A stretch of 35,579 nucleotides of DNA from an uncultured Clostridia bacterium (lineage in GTDB: Bacteria > Bacillota > Clostridia > TANB77 > CAG-508), in the NCBI GenBank assembly GCA_947625925.1, contig CANQQC010000004.1, positions 1 to 35,579 on the forward strand, read 5' to 3'. The translations under genes and the position numbers were made by a program. Each line of letters opens with the position of its first letter. Within the stretch, counting starts at the first letter, position 1. The notes below the pieces were generated by a model. That model saw only the letters and a list, made by a program, of their open reading frames with translations, ran no database searches and had not been told where the DNA came from. Below, piece by piece: positions 18,696-27,610 of this stretch.

Positions 18696-19775
18696 ATGTA
18701 TAATATAGGAATTATAGGTTTAGGGTTTTTAGGTGGCTCTTTAGCTAAGAGTTTTTCTAAATCAAAAAAAGTAAATAAAATAATTGCTTTTGATAAAAAT
18801 ATAGATAGTTTGAAAAAAGCACTATCAGATAAAGTTATATCAAATTATACTACTGATATATCTATCGAATTTAACAATTGTGATTTTGTATTCATTTCAA
18901 CTCCTGTAAGTTATATTTCTGAATATGTAAAAAAACTCGAAAAAATAGTAAAAAAAGATTGTATAATAACAGATACTGGAAGTACAAAAAAGACTATTTT
19001 AGAAAATGTTAAAGATATAAATGTTGAATTTATTGGTGGGCATCCTATGATTGGTCATGAAAAATCTGGTTATGAAACATCTAAAGATTTATTGTTTGAA
19101 AATTCATATTATATAATTACCAAAAATGAAAAAACATCTCAAAGCTCTTTAAATAAATTTAAAGAACTTATCATGGAACTACAAGCAATTCCAATAATTA
19201 TAGATGAAAATAATCATGATTATATTACATCAATAATAAGTCATGTACCACATGTTGTCGCAAGTTCATTAGTTCATTTGTTAAAAAATTCTGATGATGA
19301 GAATCAAACAATGAAAACTTTAGCTGCAGGTGGTTTTAAAGATATAACAAGAATTGCTTCTTCAGATCCTACAATGTGGGAAAATATTTGTCATGAAAAT
19401 AAAGAACATATTTTAAATGGCTTAAATTCATTATTAAATATTTTAGAAAACTTTAAAAATAATATTGAAAATAGAAATGATACTTTTGATTTTTTTAAAA
19501 ACTCTAAAGAATATAGAGATAGCTTTATTAGTAAAAAAATCGATGGGAATTCTATGCCTGAATTAAATATTTCAATTAAAGATGAAACTGGAGCAATTTC
19601 AAATATAACTACTATTTTAAGTAAAAATAATTTAAATATAAAAAATATTGAAGTTTTAAATAACAGAGAAAATAATTTTGGCGCATTAAGAATAGTTTTA
19701 AGAACTTATGAAGAAAGAGATACTGCTTTTGATATATTAAAAGATTTAGGTTTTGATATTAAAATAATCGGTTAA
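18696..19775 (+). CDS. tyrA: Prephenate dehydrogenase with C-terminal ACT domain
   Basis: A 359-residue NAD-dependent enzyme converting prephenate to 4-hydroxyphenylpyruvate in tyrosine synthesis. The Rossmann motif GIIGLGFLGGSLA is at the start. The catalytic region TDTGSTKKTI and GGHPMIGHEKSG follow, then ISHVPHVVASSL and AGGFKDITRIASSDP of the helical dimer domain. Residues from about 285 on form an ACT domain (LNISIKDETGAISNITTIL), the usual tyrosine-sensing module. It stands alone between its own promoter and a terminator, away from other aromatic-pathway genes. Feedback inhibition by tyrosine is expected from the ACT domain, not shown. Confidence 0.95.
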   Translation: MYNIGIIGLGFLGGSLAKSFSKSKKVNKIIAFDKNIDSLKKALSDKVISNYTTDISIEFNNCDFVFISTPVSYISEYVKKLEKIVKKDCIITDTGSTKKTILENVKDINVEFIGGHPMIGHEKSGYETSKDLLFENSYYIITKNEKTSQSSLNKFKELIMELQAIPIIIDENNHDYITSIISHVPHVVASSLVHLLKNSDDENQTMKTLAAGGFKDITRIASSDPTMWENICHENKEHILNGLNSLLNILENFKNNIENRNDTFDFFKNSKEYRDSFISKKIDGNSMPELNISIKDETGAISNITTILSKNNLNIKNIEVLNNRENNFGALRIVLRTYEERDTAFDILKDLGFDIKIIG

Positions 19776-19816: not shown

Positions 19817-20254
19817 TTATTTATTTAAATTTTTTGTTATAATTTCATTTGCAAAAATATTTACTGATACATAATTTCCCTTCATTTTAGTTTTATCAAT
19901 TTCACCAGTAAAAATATTTGATTCTATTTTTTCCAAAATTTGAATTTGATCTACTTTACATAGAGATAAAAAGAAATTTATATCATTGTTAATAAAAAGT
20001 CCATTATTTATATCTATATTTTCTACTTTTTTTAATTTTCCTCTTTCTATGAGTGTTTCCATATCCAAATACACATTTTTCTTTGCTAGTAAAGAATATG
20101 GATATATTTTTGCATATCTATCTTTTAATTTATCATTTTCTTCTTTACTTGCATATTCTTTTCCAAAAAAAATTTCTTCTAACTCTTCTAAAGTATCTAT
20201 TTGTACTTCATTTTTGCCTTCTATAATTATAAGGTTTTTATTCTCAAATTTCAT
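19817..20254 (-). CDS. Hypothetical protein at the end of the amidoligase cluster
   Basis: A 145-residue soluble protein with no signal peptide or membrane segment. It begins with a beta-strand-like LIIIEGKNEVQIDTLEELEE and has a charged helix in the middle; the end is again beta-like (NYVSVNIFANEIITK). I recognise no family. It follows the second amidoligase gene by 87 bases on the same strand. Its AAGGAGGAG ribosome site is 28 bases before the ATG, with a small hairpin between, and no in-frame alternative start lies nearer because a TAG interrupts the frame at the hairpin. It may be co-expressed with the amidoligases. Confidence 0.6.
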   Translation of the reverse strand: MKFENKNLIIIEGKNEVQIDTLEELEEIFFGKEYASKEENDKLKDRYAKIYPYSLLAKKNVYLDMETLIERGKLKKVENIDINNGLFINNDINFFLSLCKVDQIQILEKIESNIFTGEIDKTKMKGNYVSVNIFANEIITKNLNK

Positions 20255-20341: not shown

Positions 20342-22276
20342 TTATCTATCTATATCATTTGAGTCTTTTTCTTCTCTAATAAAAGTACCTGCATCATAAC
20401 ATATTTTATCAAATATTTCATTATCTTTAACGCTCTTCCATCTATTTCTATATATTTGCTTTTCATTTTCATTGTCAAACAATAAATCTAAAAGTCTTTC
20501 TTCTTTTTCAGCTTCAGTCACATTATGATCTTTTAATTTTTGGAATTTTTTATATAACTCTTTATCTTTATTTATCTTTTTACAAACTACTAATAACCTT
20601 CCATATAAGAAAATATTTTCTTTTTCAACTCTTGCATCTGTTGTTCCATTCGATAATCTAAATTCTATCGTTTTTTGAGATTCATAATTAAGATTTTCAA
20701 AACTAATTGCTGAAAACTTTCCTGTAAATTCTAGCTCTCTTACTAAATCTTCATACTTACTATCTGAGTCAATATTAACACTACCATCTGAAAAAATTTC
20801 TTCAATGTTTTGAGTTTGATTTGATGCATATGTATTTATGCTTTTTCTTGGAAGTTCTCCTACATCATTACTCATTTTATAAAATAATTCTTCAGTTTCA
20901 GTCCATATTTCAAGAAGGTTTTCTAGTGAACTTAAATTATCTTCTAAATAATCTGCTCCTAAATGGATATGACCTCCACATGTATTTTCTGCATTCATTC
21001 CTGTTTCTTGCATAAACTTACAGAAAAAATCAACTTGTTTCATAGATTCTGCACTAGAATCCAAAATTGGAGAAATTATTTCTGTACCATTTGTTAATGA
21101 GCCATCACCTACAACTTTCCAATTTTTATATATTGTATCTTTAAGTTTGAATCTTTTAAGTAATTCTCTTGCTCTCTTATAATAAACCCCTTCTGTTTCA
21201 AACTCCAAACCTATTGTTAATTTTTTTGGTAAATTCAATGGTTCTGAATCAAATTGTTTTTTCGGTAATTTTTTTGCTATTTTTTTAATATTTGTATTTT
21301 TATCTAGCCATTCTTTTCTTTCACGTTTGTTATCTATTGCACATCCTAAAGCTATTTTTTGTCCCTCTTTAACATCAAATCTTTTTATAAATTCTTCGAT
21401 TCCTTCTATTGATTTTATAGAAGCTATAATATCAGAAGTACAAAATTCAATTCCTTGTTTTTTCATTTCTCCAATTAGTTCAATTACTAGTTTATCATCT
21501 TCTATAGCCCCTAAAAATTCATCTATAAAATATTCTGGATTAAATTCTATACATTCTTTTACGCTTTCATTTTCTATATATTCATTAAATATTTCTTTAA
21601 CATCATCAATATCTTCTATTTTTTCTAATAGTCTAACAAAATCAGATGTAATTATATAATTATCCTCATAATTTCTAAACTTATTATTATCTCTAATTGA
21701 GTCTAATGCTTCTTTTAGAAGTTTTTTTATTACCTTTTGGTTATTAGAATTACTAAAAATTCTCATTTTATGATAAATTGTATAATCACCCTTGTTTATC
21801 TCTTCGAGTTTTTTTTCTTCATCTTTAATTGTTTTTATTATCTCAGTTCTTTCCCAAATATCAATATAATCATGATATTCTTCTAAAAATTCTATTTTTT
21901 TATCTTCACTTACAAATTTTACAACATTCAACTTTGTATGAAAAGATAAATTAGAAAATATAGAATCTGCCATTTTAATAAGATTTTTATTGTCTGTGTA
22001 ATTAATCCATAATAAAAAATAATCCTCAACTATTTCTTTTTTCTGATTATCTGGAATTTCATTATTTTCAATAAAATCAATAAATTCATTTATTAAAATT
22101 TTATACATTTCTTCAAAACTTACTTCTCTTGAAATTGCTCTTCTTTTTCTATTTAAATCAGATTTTAATATCTCAAATTCCATTCTATATTTTTTTAAAC
22201 TAAAATTTCTTACTCTTTCTTTTATATATAAAATAATATCTTCTTTTGTAGCCATTCCGTTTAAAAAAAATCTCAT
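20342..22276 (-). CDS. Amidoligase-family protein with long helical N-terminus (copy A)
   Basis: A 644-residue protein. Residues 1-350 are charged alpha-helices that look like irregular helical repeats. From residue 353 on lies an amidoligase domain, a glutamine-synthetase-related COOH-NH2 ligase fold: LTIGLEFETEG, GDGSLTNGTEIISP, CGGHIHLGADY and IEFRLSNGTTD. These keep the Glu, Asp and His positions expected to bind Mg-ATP. The family is predicted to form amide bonds between carboxylates and amines in peptides or metabolites, so the substrate is unknown. Copy B (24797-23226) is a diverged paralog sharing all these motifs. The ATG at 22276 has AAAGGAG 10 bases upstream; a second ATG is 7 codons in. 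A YitT-family gene lies between the two copies. Confidence 0.8.
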   Translation of the reverse strand: MRFFLNGMATKEDIILYIKERVRNFSLKKYRMEFEILKSDLNRKRRAISREVSFEEMYKILINEFIDFIENNEIPDNQKKEIVEDYFLLWINYTDNKNLIKMADSIFSNLSFHTKLNVVKFVSEDKKIEFLEEYHDYIDIWERTEIIKTIKDEEKKLEEINKGDYTIYHKMRIFSNSNNQKVIKKLLKEALDSIRDNNKFRNYEDNYIITSDFVRLLEKIEDIDDVKEIFNEYIENESVKECIEFNPEYFIDEFLGAIEDDKLVIELIGEMKKQGIEFCTSDIIASIKSIEGIEEFIKRFDVKEGQKIALGCAIDNKRERKEWLDKNTNIKKIAKKLPKKQFDSEPLNLPKKLTIGLEFETEGVYYKRARELLKRFKLKDTIYKNWKVVGDGSLTNGTEIISPILDSSAESMKQVDFFCKFMQETGMNAENTCGGHIHLGADYLEDNLSSLENLLEIWTETEELFYKMSNDVGELPRKSINTYASNQTQNIEEIFSDGSVNIDSDSKYEDLVRELEFTGKFSAISFENLNYESQKTIEFRLSNGTTDARVEKENIFLYGRLLVVCKKINKDKELYKKFQKLKDHNVTEAEKEERLLDLLFDNENEKQIYRNRWKSVKDNEIFDKICYDAGTFIREEKDSNDIDR

Positions 22277-22308
22277 TTAAAATTGGCTCCTTTTCGTTAA
22301 CATAAAAT

Positions 22309-22340
22309 ATGTAACTAGTATATCACTTTTCTAGTTACAT
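22309..22340 (-). terminator. Hairpin between yitT-like gene and amidoligase A
   Basis: A 10-bp perfect stem (22309-22318 with 22331-22340) and 12-base loop in the 79-base gap. Only a short T-run follows on the minus strand, so it may be a weak terminator or a processing site that lowers expression of the downstream genes. Confidence 0.4.
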
Positions 22341-22355
22341 GTCAAATTTAAAATA

Positions 22356-23222
22356 TTAACTTTTACTTTTAAATCCCAATCCTAATACCTCTCTAGCGTT
22401 TGCAACAATAACAAAACTATGAGGGTCTAATTTATGAACAATAGTTTTAATTTTCGAAATATCTCCTCTTGACGCTGCACATAAAAGTACTAGTTTCTCA
22501 TCTTGTTTATACATCCCTTTTCCAATTAAACCTGTACTTCCTCTTTCAACTTTATCTCCAATTTGTTTAGCAATTTCTTCATTTTTATCAGAAATTATAA
22601 CTAATAATTTTGTAAAATCAACACCTTCAAATATAATGTCTATCATCTTTCCAACAATAAATATTGCAATTGCTGAATAAAGACCTATTTCTATTTCTCC
22701 TAAGAAAATTACACTTAATAAAACAACAACTATATCAAAAATTGTTATAACGCTACCAACTTTTATGTTAGGATTATAGGCTTTTGCTAATCCACTTATT
22801 AAATCTGAGCCTCCTGTTGAAGATTCCATTTTAAATATAATGGCTGTACCAATACCTATTATGATGCCACCATATATTGATGCTAAAAGTCTATCATTTG
22901 TTAAAGGTTTAAGCCCATCTAACATATCAATAAAAAATGATAACGATACTGTCCCTACTATTGATTTGGTAAAAAATTTTTTTCCAATTTTATATATAGC
23001 TAACAAAAATAAAGGTACGTTTAGTGCTAAGATTACTGCTCCCATTGGCATATTAAATAAATAATAAGTAATTGTCGCTATACCTGAAATTCCTCCTGAT
23101 GTTAATTTATTTGGAAGTAAAAATAGTGTTGTACCTAAAGCTATAAATAAAGATCCTATTATTGTTCCTACTATTTCTTTGATAAATTTTTTAACATTAA
23201 AATTTTTATCTTTCACGTACAA
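22356..23222 (-). CDS. YitT-family membrane protein
   Basis: A 288-residue integral membrane protein of the YitT family: two DUF161-type repeats with five or six membrane segments (for example NKLTSGGISGIATITYYLF, and MESSTGGSDLISGLAKAYN), then a C-terminal cytosolic DUF2179 domain (EIAKQIGDKVERGSTGL, ending KLDPHSFVIVANAREVLG). The function of the family is not established. Transport is often assumed. The start is TTG 23222 with AAAGG 6 bases upstream; a GTG two codons in is the alternative. It lies 3 bases after the copy B amidoligase stop, so it is probably translated with it. That suggests, but does not show, that it moves a substrate or product of the amidoligases. Confidence 0.88.
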   Translation of the reverse strand: MYVKDKNFNVKKFIKEIVGTIIGSLFIALGTTLFLLPNKLTSGGISGIATITYYLFNMPMGAVILALNVPLFLLAIYKIGKKFFTKSIVGTVSLSFFIDMLDGLKPLTNDRLLASIYGGIIIGIGTAIIFKMESSTGGSDLISGLAKAYNPNIKVGSVITIFDIVVVLLSVIFLGEIEIGLYSAIAIFIVGKMIDIIFEGVDFTKLLVIISDKNEEIAKQIGDKVERGSTGLIGKGMYKQDEKLVLLCAASRGDISKIKTIVHKLDPHSFVIVANAREVLGLGFKSKS

Positions 23223-23225
23223 AAC

Positions 23226-24797
23226 CTACCTTTCTTCTTTTGTCATATTATTCTTAGTTAAATTATTTATTGAATAATCTTTTCTTTTAAATGTATACTT
23301 GTTTTTATCTTCACTTTTAAATAAATCATCAAAAATTTTTTCTTCTTTAACACTATCCCATCTTGCTCTATATATTTCTTTATCATTTTCTTCTTTAAAT
23401 AATAAATCTAATAAAGCTTCTACTTTTTCTTTTTCTGATAAATCATGATTCATAAATAGTTCAAGTTTTTCTTCAAGGTTTTTATTATTGGACATTTCTT
23501 TGGAAACTTCTAATAATTTTCCAAATAATTTAATGTTTTCTATTTGTACTTTATTATTTTTAGGACCATTTGGGATTCTAAATTCTATTGTATTTTTTTT
23601 AGGATTACCTAAATTACTTAAATTAAGTCCTCCATATCTATCTTGTGATATTTTTTCTTTTAAATTAATAATATCCTTCAAAGAATCGATTTTTATACTT
23701 CCATCTTCACAAAATAATTTCATACCTTCTGATTGATTACCAGCATATCTTTTTAATCTATCTCTTGGAATTTCTCCAACATCATTACTCATTTTATAAA
23801 ATAACTCTTCAGATTCATTCCATATATTAAAGAAATTTTCCCACGTCTTTAAATCATTTCCAAAATAATCTGCTCCAAAATGGATATGTCCACCACAACT
23901 TTCTTCAACTTCTAAACCTATTGTTTCAATAAGATTATATATGTATTCTATTTGTTTTAAAGAATCTGGATATGAATTTAATACTGGTGAGACAAATTCT
24001 GCCCCACATTTTAGAGAACAATCATATGTTATTTTCCATTTTCTAAAAAAACTTTCTTTTATATTTATTCTATCTATCAATTCTTTAAGCTTGTTATATA
24101 TTATTCCCTCTGTTTCAATTTCAACACCAAAAGTCATATCTTCAGGCAAATCTAATTCTGTTTTAGAATATTCTTTTTTAGAAAATTCTTCTATTCTTTC
24201 ATCTAATTTTGTTCTTTCTTTTATCCATCTATCTCTATCTTCTTTTTTTCTTAATCCACTTCCCATGACTATTTTTTCTGCTTCTGTTAAATCATAAATT
24301 TTCTCAACAAATTCAGCGTTTGCATAGTTTTTTACATATGGCATAATTTCATGCATTTTAAGTCTAATGTTATATTTTTCTATAATTTTTAATATTGGCA
24401 TATATTTTTCTATTGAACATGCAACGTTTAATCTTTCTTTTTCGCTTTTTAATGTATACATTAGTTTTAGCCTCATACCAATATCTTTTATTGATTGAAT
24501 AGCTTTTGCTTTAATTTGTTCTGATTTTATTTTATCTATTGCCTTGATTTTATCTTCATCTTCAAAAGTTAAAATAACATTTAATTTTCCTCTAACATCA
24601 TCTATTTTATCTAACGCTTCTATTTTTTTATCGTTAGATTTCATTGTTTTAACAATTTCAACTTTTATCCATATGTCTTTTATTTTATCTAATGCTTTCA
24701 TTTTTAAATTATCAGAATCAGCCTCTATTACAATTTGCATTTTTCTCCAGTCGTCTTTTAGAGTATCTAATTTTTTTAGAACATCATTATCATCCAT
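23226..24797 (-). CDS. Amidoligase-family protein with N-terminal helical repeats (copy B)
   Basis: A 523-residue paralog of copy A. The N-terminal 115 residues contain a 25-26-residue helical repeat (KALDKIKD at 34, EALDKIDD at 60, KAIDKIKS at 85), unlike the irregular helices of copy A. The amidoligase domain starts at residue 221: MTFGVEIETEG, YDCSLKCGAEFVSP, CGGHIHFGADY, EELFYKMSNDVGEIPR and IEFRIPNGPKN. Compared with copy A, GDGS is replaced by YDCS and GTE by GAE, so nucleotide or substrate handling may differ. The ribosome site is weak, 30 bases after the degenerate radical-SAM gene. The C-terminal ~30 residues are basic and probably disordered. The ligation chemistry is family inference; the substrate is unknown. 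Confidence 0.8.
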   Translation of the reverse strand: MDDNDVLKKLDTLKDDWRKMQIVIEADSDNLKMKALDKIKDIWIKVEIVKTMKSNDKKIEALDKIDDVRGKLNVILTFEDEDKIKAIDKIKSEQIKAKAIQSIKDIGMRLKLMYTLKSEKERLNVACSIEKYMPILKIIEKYNIRLKMHEIMPYVKNYANAEFVEKIYDLTEAEKIVMGSGLRKKEDRDRWIKERTKLDERIEEFSKKEYSKTELDLPEDMTFGVEIETEGIIYNKLKELIDRINIKESFFRKWKITYDCSLKCGAEFVSPVLNSYPDSLKQIEYIYNLIETIGLEVEESCGGHIHFGADYFGNDLKTWENFFNIWNESEELFYKMSNDVGEIPRDRLKRYAGNQSEGMKLFCEDGSIKIDSLKDIINLKEKISQDRYGGLNLSNLGNPKKNTIEFRIPNGPKNNKVQIENIKLFGKLLEVSKEMSNNKNLEEKLELFMNHDLSEKEKVEALLDLLFKEENDKEIYRARWDSVKEEKIFDDLFKSEDKNKYTFKRKDYSINNLTKNNMTKEER

Positions 24798-24827: not shown

Positions 24828-25853
24828 TTAATCTTCTAAAAAATCATTATATGTTTTTACAATTTCTATCTTTGATTTTCCTTGTTTTAATTCTTCATCA
24901 GGTTTTACTGTTAAATCCACATCATAAATCTCTTTTAATTTTTTTATGTTTTCATTTTTTATACCAATAACATTTTCAACATCAACTGGATTTACAGTTA
25001 CTTCTACTTCTTTAACTTTTACATTTAGTTTCTTTATTTCCGAAACAATCGCATCATACCACATTGCAATTTCAACCATTTGCCTAAAAGCAGGATGATA
25101 TGGTCCAGCTATAATCCCTTCATCTTCTTTTATATCTGCATCTTGGTATCCGATTCTTATTGTTTCAACATTTTTATCAGCAAAACATCTAACTAAATCT
25201 TTACAGATTTCTATTCCTTGTAAATCTGTTAGTGGTTGATAATTTCCTTTATTATATTCTTTTTCAAGTTTTGTATTTTTCATAACATATATTGGTAAAA
25301 TTCTTATAACTCTAGGATTTAATTTTATCAGATTTTTTGCTGTATTTATTTCATCAATTCTTGTACTATCTGGTAGACCTACCATCATCTGACATCCCAA
25401 AATAAAGCCTCTCCATTTAATCATTTTCGCGGCTTTTTTAATATCTTTGTATTTATATTTAACCTTTGTACATTTTAAAATGTAGTCACTACATGAAATT
25501 GTTTCTAATTCAATAGTTTTTACATTATATTTTTTGTATTTTTTTAATATTTTTTTTGTTATTTCATTTGGCTTTGCAACTATTCTAATACTATTAACTT
25601 TTCCTTCTTCTATAAACTTATTTATTGTTTGTAATATATCATCTTGTTTTTCTTCTTCTAATGAGGTAAAACTCTTACCTAATAAAACAACTTCCACTTC
25701 TTCTGCTTCGTTTTCTTTTTTTAATTGAGTTTCTATTAACTTTGTTATTTTTTCTTTGGTTTTTCTTGTATTCTTCTCTTGTTTAAAATAAGTACAATTA
25801 TATGGATAAATATTATTTGGTATTAAAATTGGAATAATGTATTGCTTTTTCAT
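24828..25853 (-). CDS. Elp3-like radical-SAM-fold protein that has lost its cluster cysteines
   Basis: A 341-residue protein whose whole length follows the clostridial Elp3-related radical SAM protein usually encoded next to rnc. It has YIIPILIPN at the start, GFILGCQMMVGLPDST in the barrel, PRVIRILPIYVMKNTKLE, and IIAGPYHPAFRQMVE near the end. The N-terminal motif, normally GCPHDCVFCNQ, reads IYPYNCTYFKQ (residues 15-25). Cysteines 1 and 3 are therefore Tyr16 and Phe23, and only Cys20 remains. The SAM-binding GGSFTG motif reads GKSFTS (59-64). It should not bind the 4Fe-4S cluster by the normal triad. The frame is intact, the AGAGGTG ribosome site is good, and it follows rnc by 20 bases, so it looks like an expressed pseudoenzyme rather than a decayed gene. 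Confidence 0.8.
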   Translation of the reverse strand: MKKQYIIPILIPNNIYPYNCTYFKQEKNTRKTKEKITKLIETQLKKENEAEEVEVVLLGKSFTSLEEEKQDDILQTINKFIEEGKVNSIRIVAKPNEITKKILKKYKKYNVKTIELETISCSDYILKCTKVKYKYKDIKKAAKMIKWRGFILGCQMMVGLPDSTRIDEINTAKNLIKLNPRVIRILPIYVMKNTKLEKEYNKGNYQPLTDLQGIEICKDLVRCFADKNVETIRIGYQDADIKEDEGIIAGPYHPAFRQMVEIAMWYDAIVSEIKKLNVKVKEVEVTVNPVDVENVIGIKNENIKKLKEIYDVDLTVKPDEELKQGKSKIEIVKTYNDFLED

Positions 25854-25873: not shown

Positions 25874-26548
25874 TTATTGTCCTTGCTCAAGTGCTTTCTT
25901 TGCTGCTTGCATTTGAGCTTGTTTTTTACTTTTCCCTTCTCCTTTTGCTAAAATCTTTCCATTAAGTTTTACTTGAGCAACAAAACTTTTGTCATGGTCT
26001 GGTCCAGTTTCTTTTATTATTTCATATTCAATTTTAACATCACCATGTTCTTGTAAACGTTCTTGAAGAACAGTTTTATAGTCTTTTACTCCTACATGTT
26101 TTGTTGCAGTTTCTATTTCATCTTTTAAATTATTTATAATAAATGTTTTTGCTGGTTCTATTCCACCATCTAGATATATAGCTGCTATTACTGCTTCAAC
26201 ACTATCTTCTAAAATAGCTGCTCTATTCTTTCCTCCTGTTAATATTTCAGACTTTCCTAAATATAGAAATTCACTAAATCCATTTGCCTTAGCAACTTTG
26301 CATAAATTTTCTCCACAAACTACTGTTGCTCTAACTTTTGTCATCTCTCCTTCTTTTAGTTTAGGATATGTGTGGTATATATAATTACTAGATATAAATT
26401 CAAGTATACTATCTCCTAAAAATTCTAATTTTTCATTACTTTCGAGCTTATTCTCATACGCATAAGATGTATGTGTTAAAGCTTTTTTTAGTAATTCTTT
26501 ATTCTTAAATTTATATCCTAAATTTTCTTCTAGTTTATCTAATTCCAA
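25874..26548 (-). CDS. rnc: Ribonuclease III
   Basis: A 224-residue double-strand RNA endonuclease, for rRNA maturation and mRNA decay. The catalytic signature NEKLEFLGDSILEF is at about 38-51, with the second catalytic patch at ILEDSVEAVIAAIYLDGG. A C-terminal dsRNA-binding domain runs from about 155 (DYKTVLQERLQEHG to KKQAQMQAAKKAL). The start is TTG 26548, preceded by AAGGTGGTGA. A promoter lies 25-50 bases upstream, divergent from the zeta-toxin gene. It leads the cluster that contains the Elp3-like protein and the amidoligases. In many Clostridia smc and ftsY follow the Elp3-like gene, but not here. Confidence 0.96.
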   Translation of the reverse strand: MELDKLEENLGYKFKNKELLKKALTHTSYAYENKLESNEKLEFLGDSILEFISSNYIYHTYPKLKEGEMTKVRATVVCGENLCKVAKANGFSEFLYLGKSEILTGGKNRAAILEDSVEAVIAAIYLDGGIEPAKTFIINNLKDEIETATKHVGVKDYKTVLQERLQEHGDVKIEYEIIKETGPDHDKSFVAQVKLNGKILAKGEGKSKKQAQMQAAKKALEQGQ

Positions 26549-26648: not shown

Positions 26649-26683
26649 TATATTAGAGTGATTTTTAAATGGAGGTGAATCTT

Positions 26684-27610
26684 TTGGAATTTAATATAGA
26701 AGAAGAACAAAAAAAGTGGAAACTAACAGAAGATGAATTTTTAGATAATTTAGAAGATATTTTTAATCAATTAGCATTAACTTCAAAAAGTGTAGAGTTA
26801 CCAACTTTTGTTATGGTAGGTGGACAAGCTGGTTCAGGAAAGACTCAATTAGTTGGAAAAACTTCTAGCAATCTTGAAGGTAATGCCATTATAATAGACC
26901 AAGATGAATTAAGAACTAAATTTCCTGAAGAAAAATATCAACAAATTCATGATAATTATACTGAAAGAGAAGAATTTTTAATATTAAAACCATATATTTC
27001 AAAACTTGTTAAAGCCCTAATTCAAAAAGCTAAAGAAGGTAATTATAATATTGTTTTAGAATCTGCTTTAAGAAGTATTAAAACTTTCAAGGATTATCCA
27101 GCCCAATTAAGAGTAGCTGGATATAGAACTGAACTGTCAGTATTAGCTGTTCCAGAACTTGAAGCAAATATTTCAATGTTAGTTCGCTATTGTGAGTTCT
27201 TACAAAGAGATGGAGAATGTAGAAGAAATACAAGACTAGATCATGAAGCAGTTTTAAAGATAAAGGAAAACATACAAAAACTTGATGAATTAGATGTTTT
27301 TGATGACATAAAAATTTCTATAAGATCTAAAGAGAAAAATAAACTTCCTGTCTTAATTTATTCTAAAAGCGAAAACACAAACGAAACACCTGTTGAAGCT
27401 TTTCAAAGAGGAGAACAAATAACTTTAGAAACAACTAAAAAAACTTTTCCTAAAAAATATAAAGAGATAAAGAAATTCCTTAATGAAAATGAAAAAGATA
27501 GTCTTCAATTAGAAAAATTGGAAATTTTAAGAAAACAATATGAACAAGAATTTAATATTGACATAGATTCATATGGCTTTGATAGTTCTACAAATGATAA
27601 TAGATATTAA
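26684..27610 (+). CDS. Zeta-toxin-family P-loop kinase
   Basis: A 308-residue protein of the zeta/PezT family, which phosphorylates UDP-N-acetylglucosamine and so blocks wall synthesis. From the TTG start, Walker A GGQAGSGKT lies near 46-54, then IIIDQDELRTKFP (the catalytic Asp region) and FLQRDGECRRNTRLDHEAV with the basic residues expected to contact substrate phosphates. An ATG at 26669 precedes it, but the GGAGGTGA at 26671-26678 lies inside that extension and is 5-6 bases from TTG 26684, so I prefer the TTG. No epsilon-type antitoxin gene is upstream; the next gene there is rnc. A 63-residue ORF follows 14 bases downstream. Chromosomal zeta-like kinases without antitoxin exist, so toxicity is not certain. 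Confidence 0.8.
   Translation: MEFNIEEEQKKWKLTEDEFLDNLEDIFNQLALTSKSVELPTFVMVGGQAGSGKTQLVGKTSSNLEGNAIIIDQDELRTKFPEEKYQQIHDNYTEREEFLILKPYISKLVKALIQKAKEGNYNIVLESALRSIKTFKDYPAQLRVAGYRTELSVLAVPELEANISMLVRYCEFLQRDGECRRNTRLDHEAVLKIKENIQKLDELDVFDDIKISIRSKEKNKLPVLIYSKSENTNETPVEAFQRGEQITLETTKKTFPKKYKEIKKFLNENEKDSLQLEKLEILRKQYEQEFNIDIDSYGFDSSTNDNRY

What the first reader, a model, noticed from the sequence alone, without database searches (positions are those of the whole stretch)
20342..24797. Two diverged amidoligases flank a YitT membrane protein behind rnc
Copies A and B share every amidoligase motif but differ in their N-terminal helical regions and in one catalytic-region motif (GDGS versus YDCS). 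They sit in one co-directional run with a YitT-like membrane protein, a degenerate radical-SAM-fold protein and a small unknown protein. Family knowledge: amidoligases are predicted to form new amide bonds on peptides or metabolites. Inference: this could be a small biosynthetic or protein-modifying unit with its own membrane component, and I know of no description of it.
Basis: partly seen in the sequence, partly recalled or inferred. Interest (0 to 1): 0.72.

Follow-up and report, generated by a model that had tools for sequence, protein, structure and literature searches.

The report
Helical-repeat amidoligases with partner protein
Two enzymes predicted to forge amide bonds, in an uncultured Clostridia-type bacterium, are real and look intact, but their true partners are small, undescribed proteins found beside such enzymes across related gut bacteria, not the membrane gene lying between them, so they probably belong to an unknown modification system.

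Summary
A (20342-22276) and B (23226-24797) are intact PF12224 amidoligases on the minus strand, in one run rnc-rSAM-B-YitT-A-S1. They are sister paralogues, 44% identical over the catalytic domain, and keep nearly every conserved residue. "GDGS versus YDCS" differs only at positions the family varies. An AlphaFold2 model of A shows an alpha-solenoid plus a glutamine-synthetase-fold domain (Z 11-12.5 to GS, YbdK, GCL, Dop).

The proposed A-YitT-B unit fails. YitT follows rnc-rSAM in 19 of 20 same-genus loci without any amidoligase, and lies near 0 of 75 amidoligases taken from GTDB genomes.

Another unit emerges. A's small neighbour S1 (19817-20254) belongs to a family found only within this order in the samples searched; 18 of 20 S1 genes adjoin an amidoligase. 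A second small protein, S2, often completes the cassette: 50 of 66 loci with enough flank carry S1 and/or S2, all co-directional. S2 has a basic amphipathic C-terminal helix, occurs in up to 13 copies per genome and sits beside many unrelated orphan proteins. S2 is absent from the window but present elsewhere in this genome.

Best reading: a solenoid-targeted amidoligase (ligase or reverse hydrolase) with dedicated subunit S1 and a general membrane adaptor S2. The genetics are shown; substrate and chemistry are inferred.

The parts
20342..22276 (-). Amidoligase A, 644 aa: alpha-solenoid (about residues 11-340) plus glutamine-synthetase-fold amidoligase domain (about 350-620)
   Evidence: PF12224 58.8 bits; AlphaFold2 model mecd2959398c0, pLDDT 84, pTM 0.71; VIA-align Z 11-12.5 to GS, YbdK, GCL and Dop; conserved residues E358, E360, E399, H436, H438, R477, E538, R540, R612 present
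19817..20254 (-). S1, 145 aa, dedicated partner protein of helical-repeat amidoligases, no known family; alpha/beta fold predicted with high confidence
   Evidence: profile match to S1 of relatives; 18 of 20 S1 genes in 287 genomes adjoin an amidoligase; AlphaFold2 pLDDT 92.4, pTM 0.88; no match in PDB or BFVD
23226..24797 (-). Amidoligase B, 523 aa, sister paralogue of A with a shorter repeat region; inserted between rSAM and YitT; no S1 or S2 next to it
   Evidence: PF12224 61.8 bits; sister of A with SH-aLRT 98 and 44% identity over 262 columns; conserved residues kept except T412 replaced by P
22317..22345 (-). Promoter-like site (TTGACA-17-TATACT with TG before the -10) between YitT and A; would start an A-S1 transcript separate from YitT
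   Evidence: best of the matches in 8.5 kb (11 of 12), but the overall number of matches is at chance level (63 against 65 in shuffles): suggestive only
22356..23222 (-). YitT-family membrane protein (PF02588 + DUF2179): vertically inherited neighbour, judged NOT part of the unit
   Evidence: follows rnc-rSAM in 19 of 20 same-genus loci without an amidoligase; next to 0 of 75 amidoligases
24828..25853 (-). Elp3-like radical-SAM-fold protein that lost its [4Fe-4S] cysteines: housekeeping neighbour of rnc, NOT part of the unit
25874..26548 (-). rnc (ribonuclease III): conserved anchor of the locus, NOT part of the unit
   Evidence: found in 53 of 55 relatives, synteny

Best explanation
A and S1 are two genes of a lineage-specific amidoligase cassette that inserted beside the conserved rnc-rSAM-YitT block; B is a diverged duplicate of A that landed one gene upstream. 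The C-terminal domain of A and B is a glutamine-synthetase-fold, ATP- and Mg-dependent enzyme that makes (or, like Dop, breaks) an amide bond on a carboxylate. The N-terminal alpha-solenoid, which varies in length from copy to copy, selects a macromolecular target. S1 is a dedicated subunit or regulator of the solenoid-bearing form. S2, encoded in the same cassette in most relatives and supplied in trans from other loci in this genome, is a small adaptor with a basic amphipathic C-terminal helix that docks the enzyme, and many unrelated client proteins, to the membrane. Shown: gene order, family membership, fold, kept conserved residues, S1 and S2 linkage, order restriction. Inferred: physical contact of S1 with the enzyme, membrane docking by S2, the target and the direction of the reaction.
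For: Family and fold. Intact conserved residues. Linkage: 50 of 66 amidoligase loci with at least 1 kb flank on both sides carry S1 and/or S2 within 1 kb (28 both, 13 S2 only, 9 S1 only), 88 of 88 S1/S2 genes on the amidoligase strand. These loci were chosen by the amidoligase alone. From the copy numbers, chance would give roughly 1% for S2 and far less for S1 (my estimate). S1 occurs in 19 of 287 genomes of the order and 18 of 20 S1 genes adjoin an amidoligase, including both S1 genes of this genome. Pairwise distances of amidoligase and S1 (r 0.78, 25 loci) and of amidoligase and S2 (r 0.67, 30 loci) agree better than in all of 2000 permutations, so the cassette is inherited together. S1 goes with the solenoid: 27 of 57 solenoid forms against 1 of 14 without. 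S2 C-terminal helix: hydrophobic moment 0.61 against 0.27 shuffled, charge +5. S1 and S2 are absent from 198 other genomes of the phylum sample.
Against: No biochemical evidence for any PF12224 member was found in the held papers (the founding 2009 paper is not held). 16 of 66 loci, including the Bacilli and Mycoplasmatota-labelled ones, have neither S1 nor S2 beside the enzyme, and B has neither. The S1-solenoid association is confounded by phylogeny, since the solenoid-less forms are mostly one clade. S2 is not in the window. Many relatives carry split amidoligase frames, which suggests decay or loose selection.
Confidence: 0.5

Rival explanations
1. One reading: A, YitT and B form a small biosynthetic or modifying operon with YitT as its membrane component.
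For: Co-directional genes with short gaps (3 to 79 bp) in this one genome; B lies only 3 bp from YitT.
Against: YitT follows rnc-rSAM in 19 of 20 same-genus loci and no amidoligase is there; 0 of 75 amidoligase loci have this YitT within 3 kb; a strong promoter-like site separates YitT from A (suggestive only).
Confidence: 0.04
2. Effector-type reading: the amidoligase is one client of a diverse repertoire served by the adaptor S2. The clients are delivered to, or act on, other cells or the host surface, and S1 is an immunity or chaperone protein.
For: S2 is conserved while its neighbours are unrelated to each other. Only 5 of 30 scanned S2 neighbours pass a Pfam cut-off, among them DUF4116, Sel1 repeats, calcineurin-like phosphoesterase and a SecA-like ATPase, plus a sub-threshold HopA1 effector match, against 6 of 10 control genes.
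Against: No secretion signal or secretion machinery was tested; Sel1 and phosphoesterase domains are common outside effectors; S1 is conserved rather than diversifying as immunity proteins usually do; no PADLOC match worth noting.
Confidence: 0.2
3. The enzyme works in reverse, as a deamidase or amidase (Dop-like), removing an amide-linked group from a target protein.
For: The predicted domain is about as close to Dop (Z 11.3-11.7) as to GS (Z 12-12.5) and YbdK (11.8); Dop is a GS-fold enzyme that hydrolyses isopeptides (established knowledge).
Against: No residue diagnostic of the hydrolase direction was tested; most of the superfamily are ligases.
Confidence: 0.12
4. Pup-like tagging: S1 or S2 is the tag that the amidoligase conjugates to targets, as PafA does with Pup.
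For: Shared PafA/Dop fold and small partner proteins encoded next to the enzyme.
Against: Neither family has a conserved C-terminal Glu or Gln: last residues vary. S1 is a folded alpha/beta protein (pLDDT 92), unlike disordered Pup.
Confidence: 0.05
5. Ordinary prophage-type amidoligase with a gamma-glutamyl cyclotransferase, acting in small-peptide or wall metabolism.
For: Same Pfam family; two related genomes carry that type (L015, L016).
Against: No cyclotransferase-like gene in any of the 75 loci, while both prophage-type controls have one; no phage genes around A and B; the prophage types score 187-254 bits to PF12224 while the repeat type scores 20-74.
Confidence: 0.04

Closest known systems
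PF12224 Amidoligase_2 (predicted GS/GCS-like amidoligases; family reasoning in Iyer et al. 2009, doi 10.1039/b917682a, cited in PMC11318856 and PMC8976061; paper itself not held)
   Same: Profile match above cut-off, GS fold, conserved acidic, His and Arg residues
   Different: N-terminal alpha-solenoid, S1 and S2 partners, no cyclotransferase partner; far lower scores than prophage members
Prophage amidoligase + gamma-glutamyl cyclotransferase pairs (e.g. C. clostridioforme prophages, PMC11318856; here L015, L016)
   Same: Same enzyme family
   Different: Phage context and cyclotransferase partner, neither present here
Glutamine synthetase, YbdK carboxylate-amine ligase, plant glutamate-cysteine ligase
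   Same: Fold of residues 330-621 of A (Z 11-12.5 over about 230 residues); ExE and ExR motifs resemble theirs (recollection, residue mapping not computed)
   Different: Sequence identity 7-14%; these act on free small molecules; A carries a solenoid and small partner proteins
PafA/Dop pupylation enzymes
   Same: GS fold (Dop Z 11.3-11.7), a precedent for a GS-fold enzyme acting on proteins
   Different: No Pup-like tag found; solenoid absent from Dop
YitT/DUF2179 membrane proteins
   Same: The gene between A and B is one
   Different: Belongs to the conserved rnc block, not to the amidoligase unit

Membership tests
PF12224 Amidoligase_2 | profile score above curated cut-off | tested here: met
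   A 58.8, B 61.8 bits against 22
PF12224 Amidoligase_2 | glutamine-synthetase/GCS fold | tested here: met
   AlphaFold2 model of A; Z 11-12.5 to GS, YbdK, GCL and Dop. Predicted model, not a solved structure; B not modelled
PF12224 Amidoligase_2 | conserved putative catalytic residues intact | tested here: met
   every position conserved at 98% or more kept in A and B
PF12224 Amidoligase_2 | ATP-dependent amide ligation | not testable with these tools
   needs biochemistry
Prophage amidoligase-cyclotransferase pair | gamma-glutamyl cyclotransferase next to the amidoligase | tested here: not met
   motif scan: none in 75 loci, present in both prophage-type controls; no such ORF beside A or B
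Pupylation-like tagging | small partner ending in a conserved Glu/Gln | tested here: not met
   C-termini of 34 S1 and 34 S2 proteins vary
RiPP-type peptide biosynthesis | conserved small precursor peptide by the enzyme | tested here: inconclusive
   no small ORF (18-75 aa) family shared by diverged loci; S1 and S2 are too large and folded for typical precursors; distant precursors could be missed
Known anti-phage defence systems (PADLOC) | profile match | tested here: inconclusive
   no match for A or B; only chance-level scores for S1
Amidoligase-S1-S2 cassette (proposed here) | co-directional S1 and/or S2 next to the amidoligase | tested here: met
   A has S1; B has neither; S2 is not in the window but occurs at four other places of the genome

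The most novel reading that the evidence does not exclude
This order of small-genome gut Clostridia owns a previously undescribed adaptor system. One small protein family (S2), up to 13 copies per genome with a membrane-binding tail, is genetically coupled to a large set of mutually unrelated, mostly orphan proteins. The solenoid amidoligases with their private subunit S1 are its protein-modifying branch, forming amide bonds on targets at the membrane.
Probability: 0.3. Interest if true: 0.78.

Novelty: new variant of a known kind. Interest (0 to 1): 0.6.

Why it matters
PF12224 has long been a predicted amidoligase family without a known substrate (my knowledge; no assay was found in the held literature). 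A cassette with two constant, small, expressible partners and an attached target-binding solenoid gives that prediction concrete handles: pull-downs with S1 and the solenoid should reveal the substrate. S1 and S2 are protein families in no searched library. S1 has a confidently predicted fold without a PDB match in two looks. S2 marks many orphan genes across a whole order of gut bacteria.

Tried and rejected
A-YitT-B as a conserved unit: rejected. GDGS/YDCS as a catalytic difference: rejected. Cyclotransferase partner: none. Conserved small peptide: only near-identical sister loci shared any. Phage or plasmid origin: plasmids no match; phages only a distant Porphyromonas phage amidoligase; S2 not in either collection and S1 not in phages; IMG/VR gave only distant hits. 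S1 fold: Foldseek against PDB and BFVD best E above 0.4, VIA best Z 2.0; this does not prove a new fold. S1 and S2 against Pfam, PADLOC, NCBIfam and PHROGs: only chance-level scores; against PDB sequences none. A weak match of the repeat region to a designed protein (2l82, E 5e-4) is taken as helical composition. S2 in the window with all filters off: none. S2 coupling to a neighbour of at least 150 aa within 60 bp: 27 of 38 against 12 of 25 for other small ORFs, only a mild excess because genomes are dense.
Full report
WHAT IS THERE. The minus strand of the window reads rnc (25874-26548), an Elp3-like radical-SAM-fold protein (24828-25853), amidoligase B (23226-24797), YitT (22356-23222), amidoligase A (20342-22276) and a 145-aa protein here called S1 (19817-20254); a prephenate dehydrogenase follows on the plus strand. 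A and B match PF12224 at 58.8 and 61.8 bits (cut-off 22). The genome holds a third PF12224 gene on contig C12.

ENZYMES. In an alignment of up to 103 relatives A and B keep every position conserved at 98% or more (A numbering: G356, E358, E360, E399, H436, R477, T536, E538, F539, R540, R612) and nearly all others. The 'GDGS versus YDCS' difference falls on positions the family varies. A and B are each other's closest relatives (SH-aLRT 98, 44% identity over 262 columns), while the third copy sits in another clade. The tree is a quick one, with many weak inner branches. An AlphaFold2 model of A from a 48-sequence alignment (pLDDT 84, pTM 0.71) has an alpha-solenoid (residues 11-340) and a domain whose best structural matches are glutamine synthetases (Z 12.5, 3.8 A, about 232 residues), YbdK (Z 11.8), plant glutamate-cysteine ligase (11.1) and Dop (11.3-11.7). 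Foldseek itself gave YbdK first, at E 0.003. So the amidoligase fold is supported by prediction; activity is not shown.

YITT IS A BYSTANDER. rnc was located in 53 of 55 relatives. In 20 same-genus loci read in detail, rSAM follows rnc in all, YitT follows rSAM in 19 (18 directly) and none has an amidoligase there; ogg and addB often come next. PF12224 genes occur in only 8 of 34 same-genus genomes and 50 of 287 of the order. Of 75 loci fetched from GTDB genomes by the amidoligase alone, none has this YitT within 3 kb. Four of the 75, all one clade, have amidoligase-S2 directly before rnc, a second, independent arrival near rnc.

THE REAL PARTNERS. Two small protein families keep company with these enzymes. 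S1 was found in 19 of 287 genomes of the order (20 genes). All but those of G238 and G186 lie directly beside an amidoligase or, in G266, beside the start of one cut by the contig end. Both S1 genes of the window's own genome do, the second being truncated by the contig end at C12:28-237. S2 was found in 238 of 287 genomes, up to 13 copies each. Among the 75 amidoligase loci, 66 have at least 1 kb on both sides; 50 of these carry S1 and/or S2 within 1 kb (28 both, 13 S2, 9 S1), always on the same strand. Distances of amidoligase and partners correlate (r 0.78 for S1, 0.67 for S2, no permutation of 2000 as high). In a sample of 198 other genomes of the phylum neither family was found. S1 goes with solenoid-bearing enzymes (27 of 57 against 1 of 14 without, p 0.006), but the solenoid-less forms are mostly one clade, so this is not independent evidence. 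B has neither partner, and no S2 exists in the window even with all filters off; four S2 genes lie elsewhere in the genome.

S1 AND S2. Neither matches Pfam, NCBIfam, PHROGs, PADLOC or PDB sequences above chance. S1 is predicted with high confidence (pLDDT 92.4, pTM 0.88) as an alpha/beta protein without a match in PDB or BFVD; conserved are E91, S97, E108, Y128 and N132. S2 ends in a strongly amphipathic basic helix (moment 0.61 against 0.27 shuffled, mean charge +5; the window of maximal moment out of five was taken, which favours it slightly). Besides amidoligases, S2 genes neighbour large proteins unrelated to each other. Of 30 scanned, 5 pass a Pfam cut-off (DUF4116, Sel1, calcineurin-like phosphoesterase, SecA-like ATPase, and one C26 peptidase that may be an ordinary neighbour), and one shows a sub-threshold HopA1 effector match; of 10 control genes from the same stretches 6 do. 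Constant small protein with varying partners is what adaptors or chaperones look like; immunity proteins would vary instead. This is inference.

MECHANISM. Most likely (about 0.5): an ATP-dependent GS-fold amidoligase aimed at a macromolecule by its solenoid, with S1 as dedicated subunit and S2 as membrane adaptor; A-S1 may have its own promoter (22345-22317, suggestive only). The main uncertainty is substrate and direction. A Pup-like tag is unlikely, since neither partner has a conserved C-terminal Glu/Gln. A peptide-product cluster is not indicated, and the prophage amidoligase-cyclotransferase type is excluded for these loci by the missing cyclotransferase.

NOVELTY AND LIMITS. The enzyme family is known as a prediction; the repeat-bearing cassette and both partner families were in no library or paper I could search (the founding 2009 paper was not held). 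Hence 'new variant of a known kind'. Limits: metagenome assemblies with split frames, no experiments, one tree without bootstrap, S2 and B not modelled.

Noticed in passing
24828-25853 (-): The radical-SAM protein after rnc has lost the CxxxCxxC cysteines and neighbouring conserved motifs, while seven same-genus relatives keep them (55-59% identity); the frame is intact, so it may be a pseudoenzyme retained for its C-terminal part.
   Followed up: partly
L150-L166, L256-L294 (order-wide); own genome G000:C17:7922, C31:11247, C48:5085, C60:2505: The S2 family: up to 13 copies per genome in 238 of 287 genomes of the order, next to large, mutually unrelated, mostly Pfam-orphan proteins, often with overlapping or nearly overlapping frames.
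   Followed up: partly
L274:839-3427: An S2-coupled 862-aa protein matches SecA domains (P-loop_SecA 44.8 bits), an odd SecA relative overlapping an S2 gene.
   Followed up: no
L272:943-3396: An S2-coupled 817-aa protein has a weak match to the HopA1 effector family (20.4 bits, below the cut-off of 22.7).
   Followed up: no
G000:C12 (L017:253-2340 and the contig start): Third amidoligase of the same genome, in a clade away from A and B, followed by an S1 gene cut by the contig end.
   Followed up: partly
L132 and other amidoligase loci: Tandem amidoligase-amidoligase-(fragment)-S1-S2 array, and many split amidoligase frames in relatives, suggesting repeated duplication and decay.
   Followed up: no
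26669-27610 (+): Zeta-toxin-like P-loop kinase (PF06414, 1e-30) divergent from rnc; a relative lies near another amidoligase in L026.
   Followed up: no
18696-19775 (+): A prephenate dehydrogenase gene sits between S1 and ogg, a place where the same-genus loci read have none; it may have arrived with the insertion.
   Followed up: no
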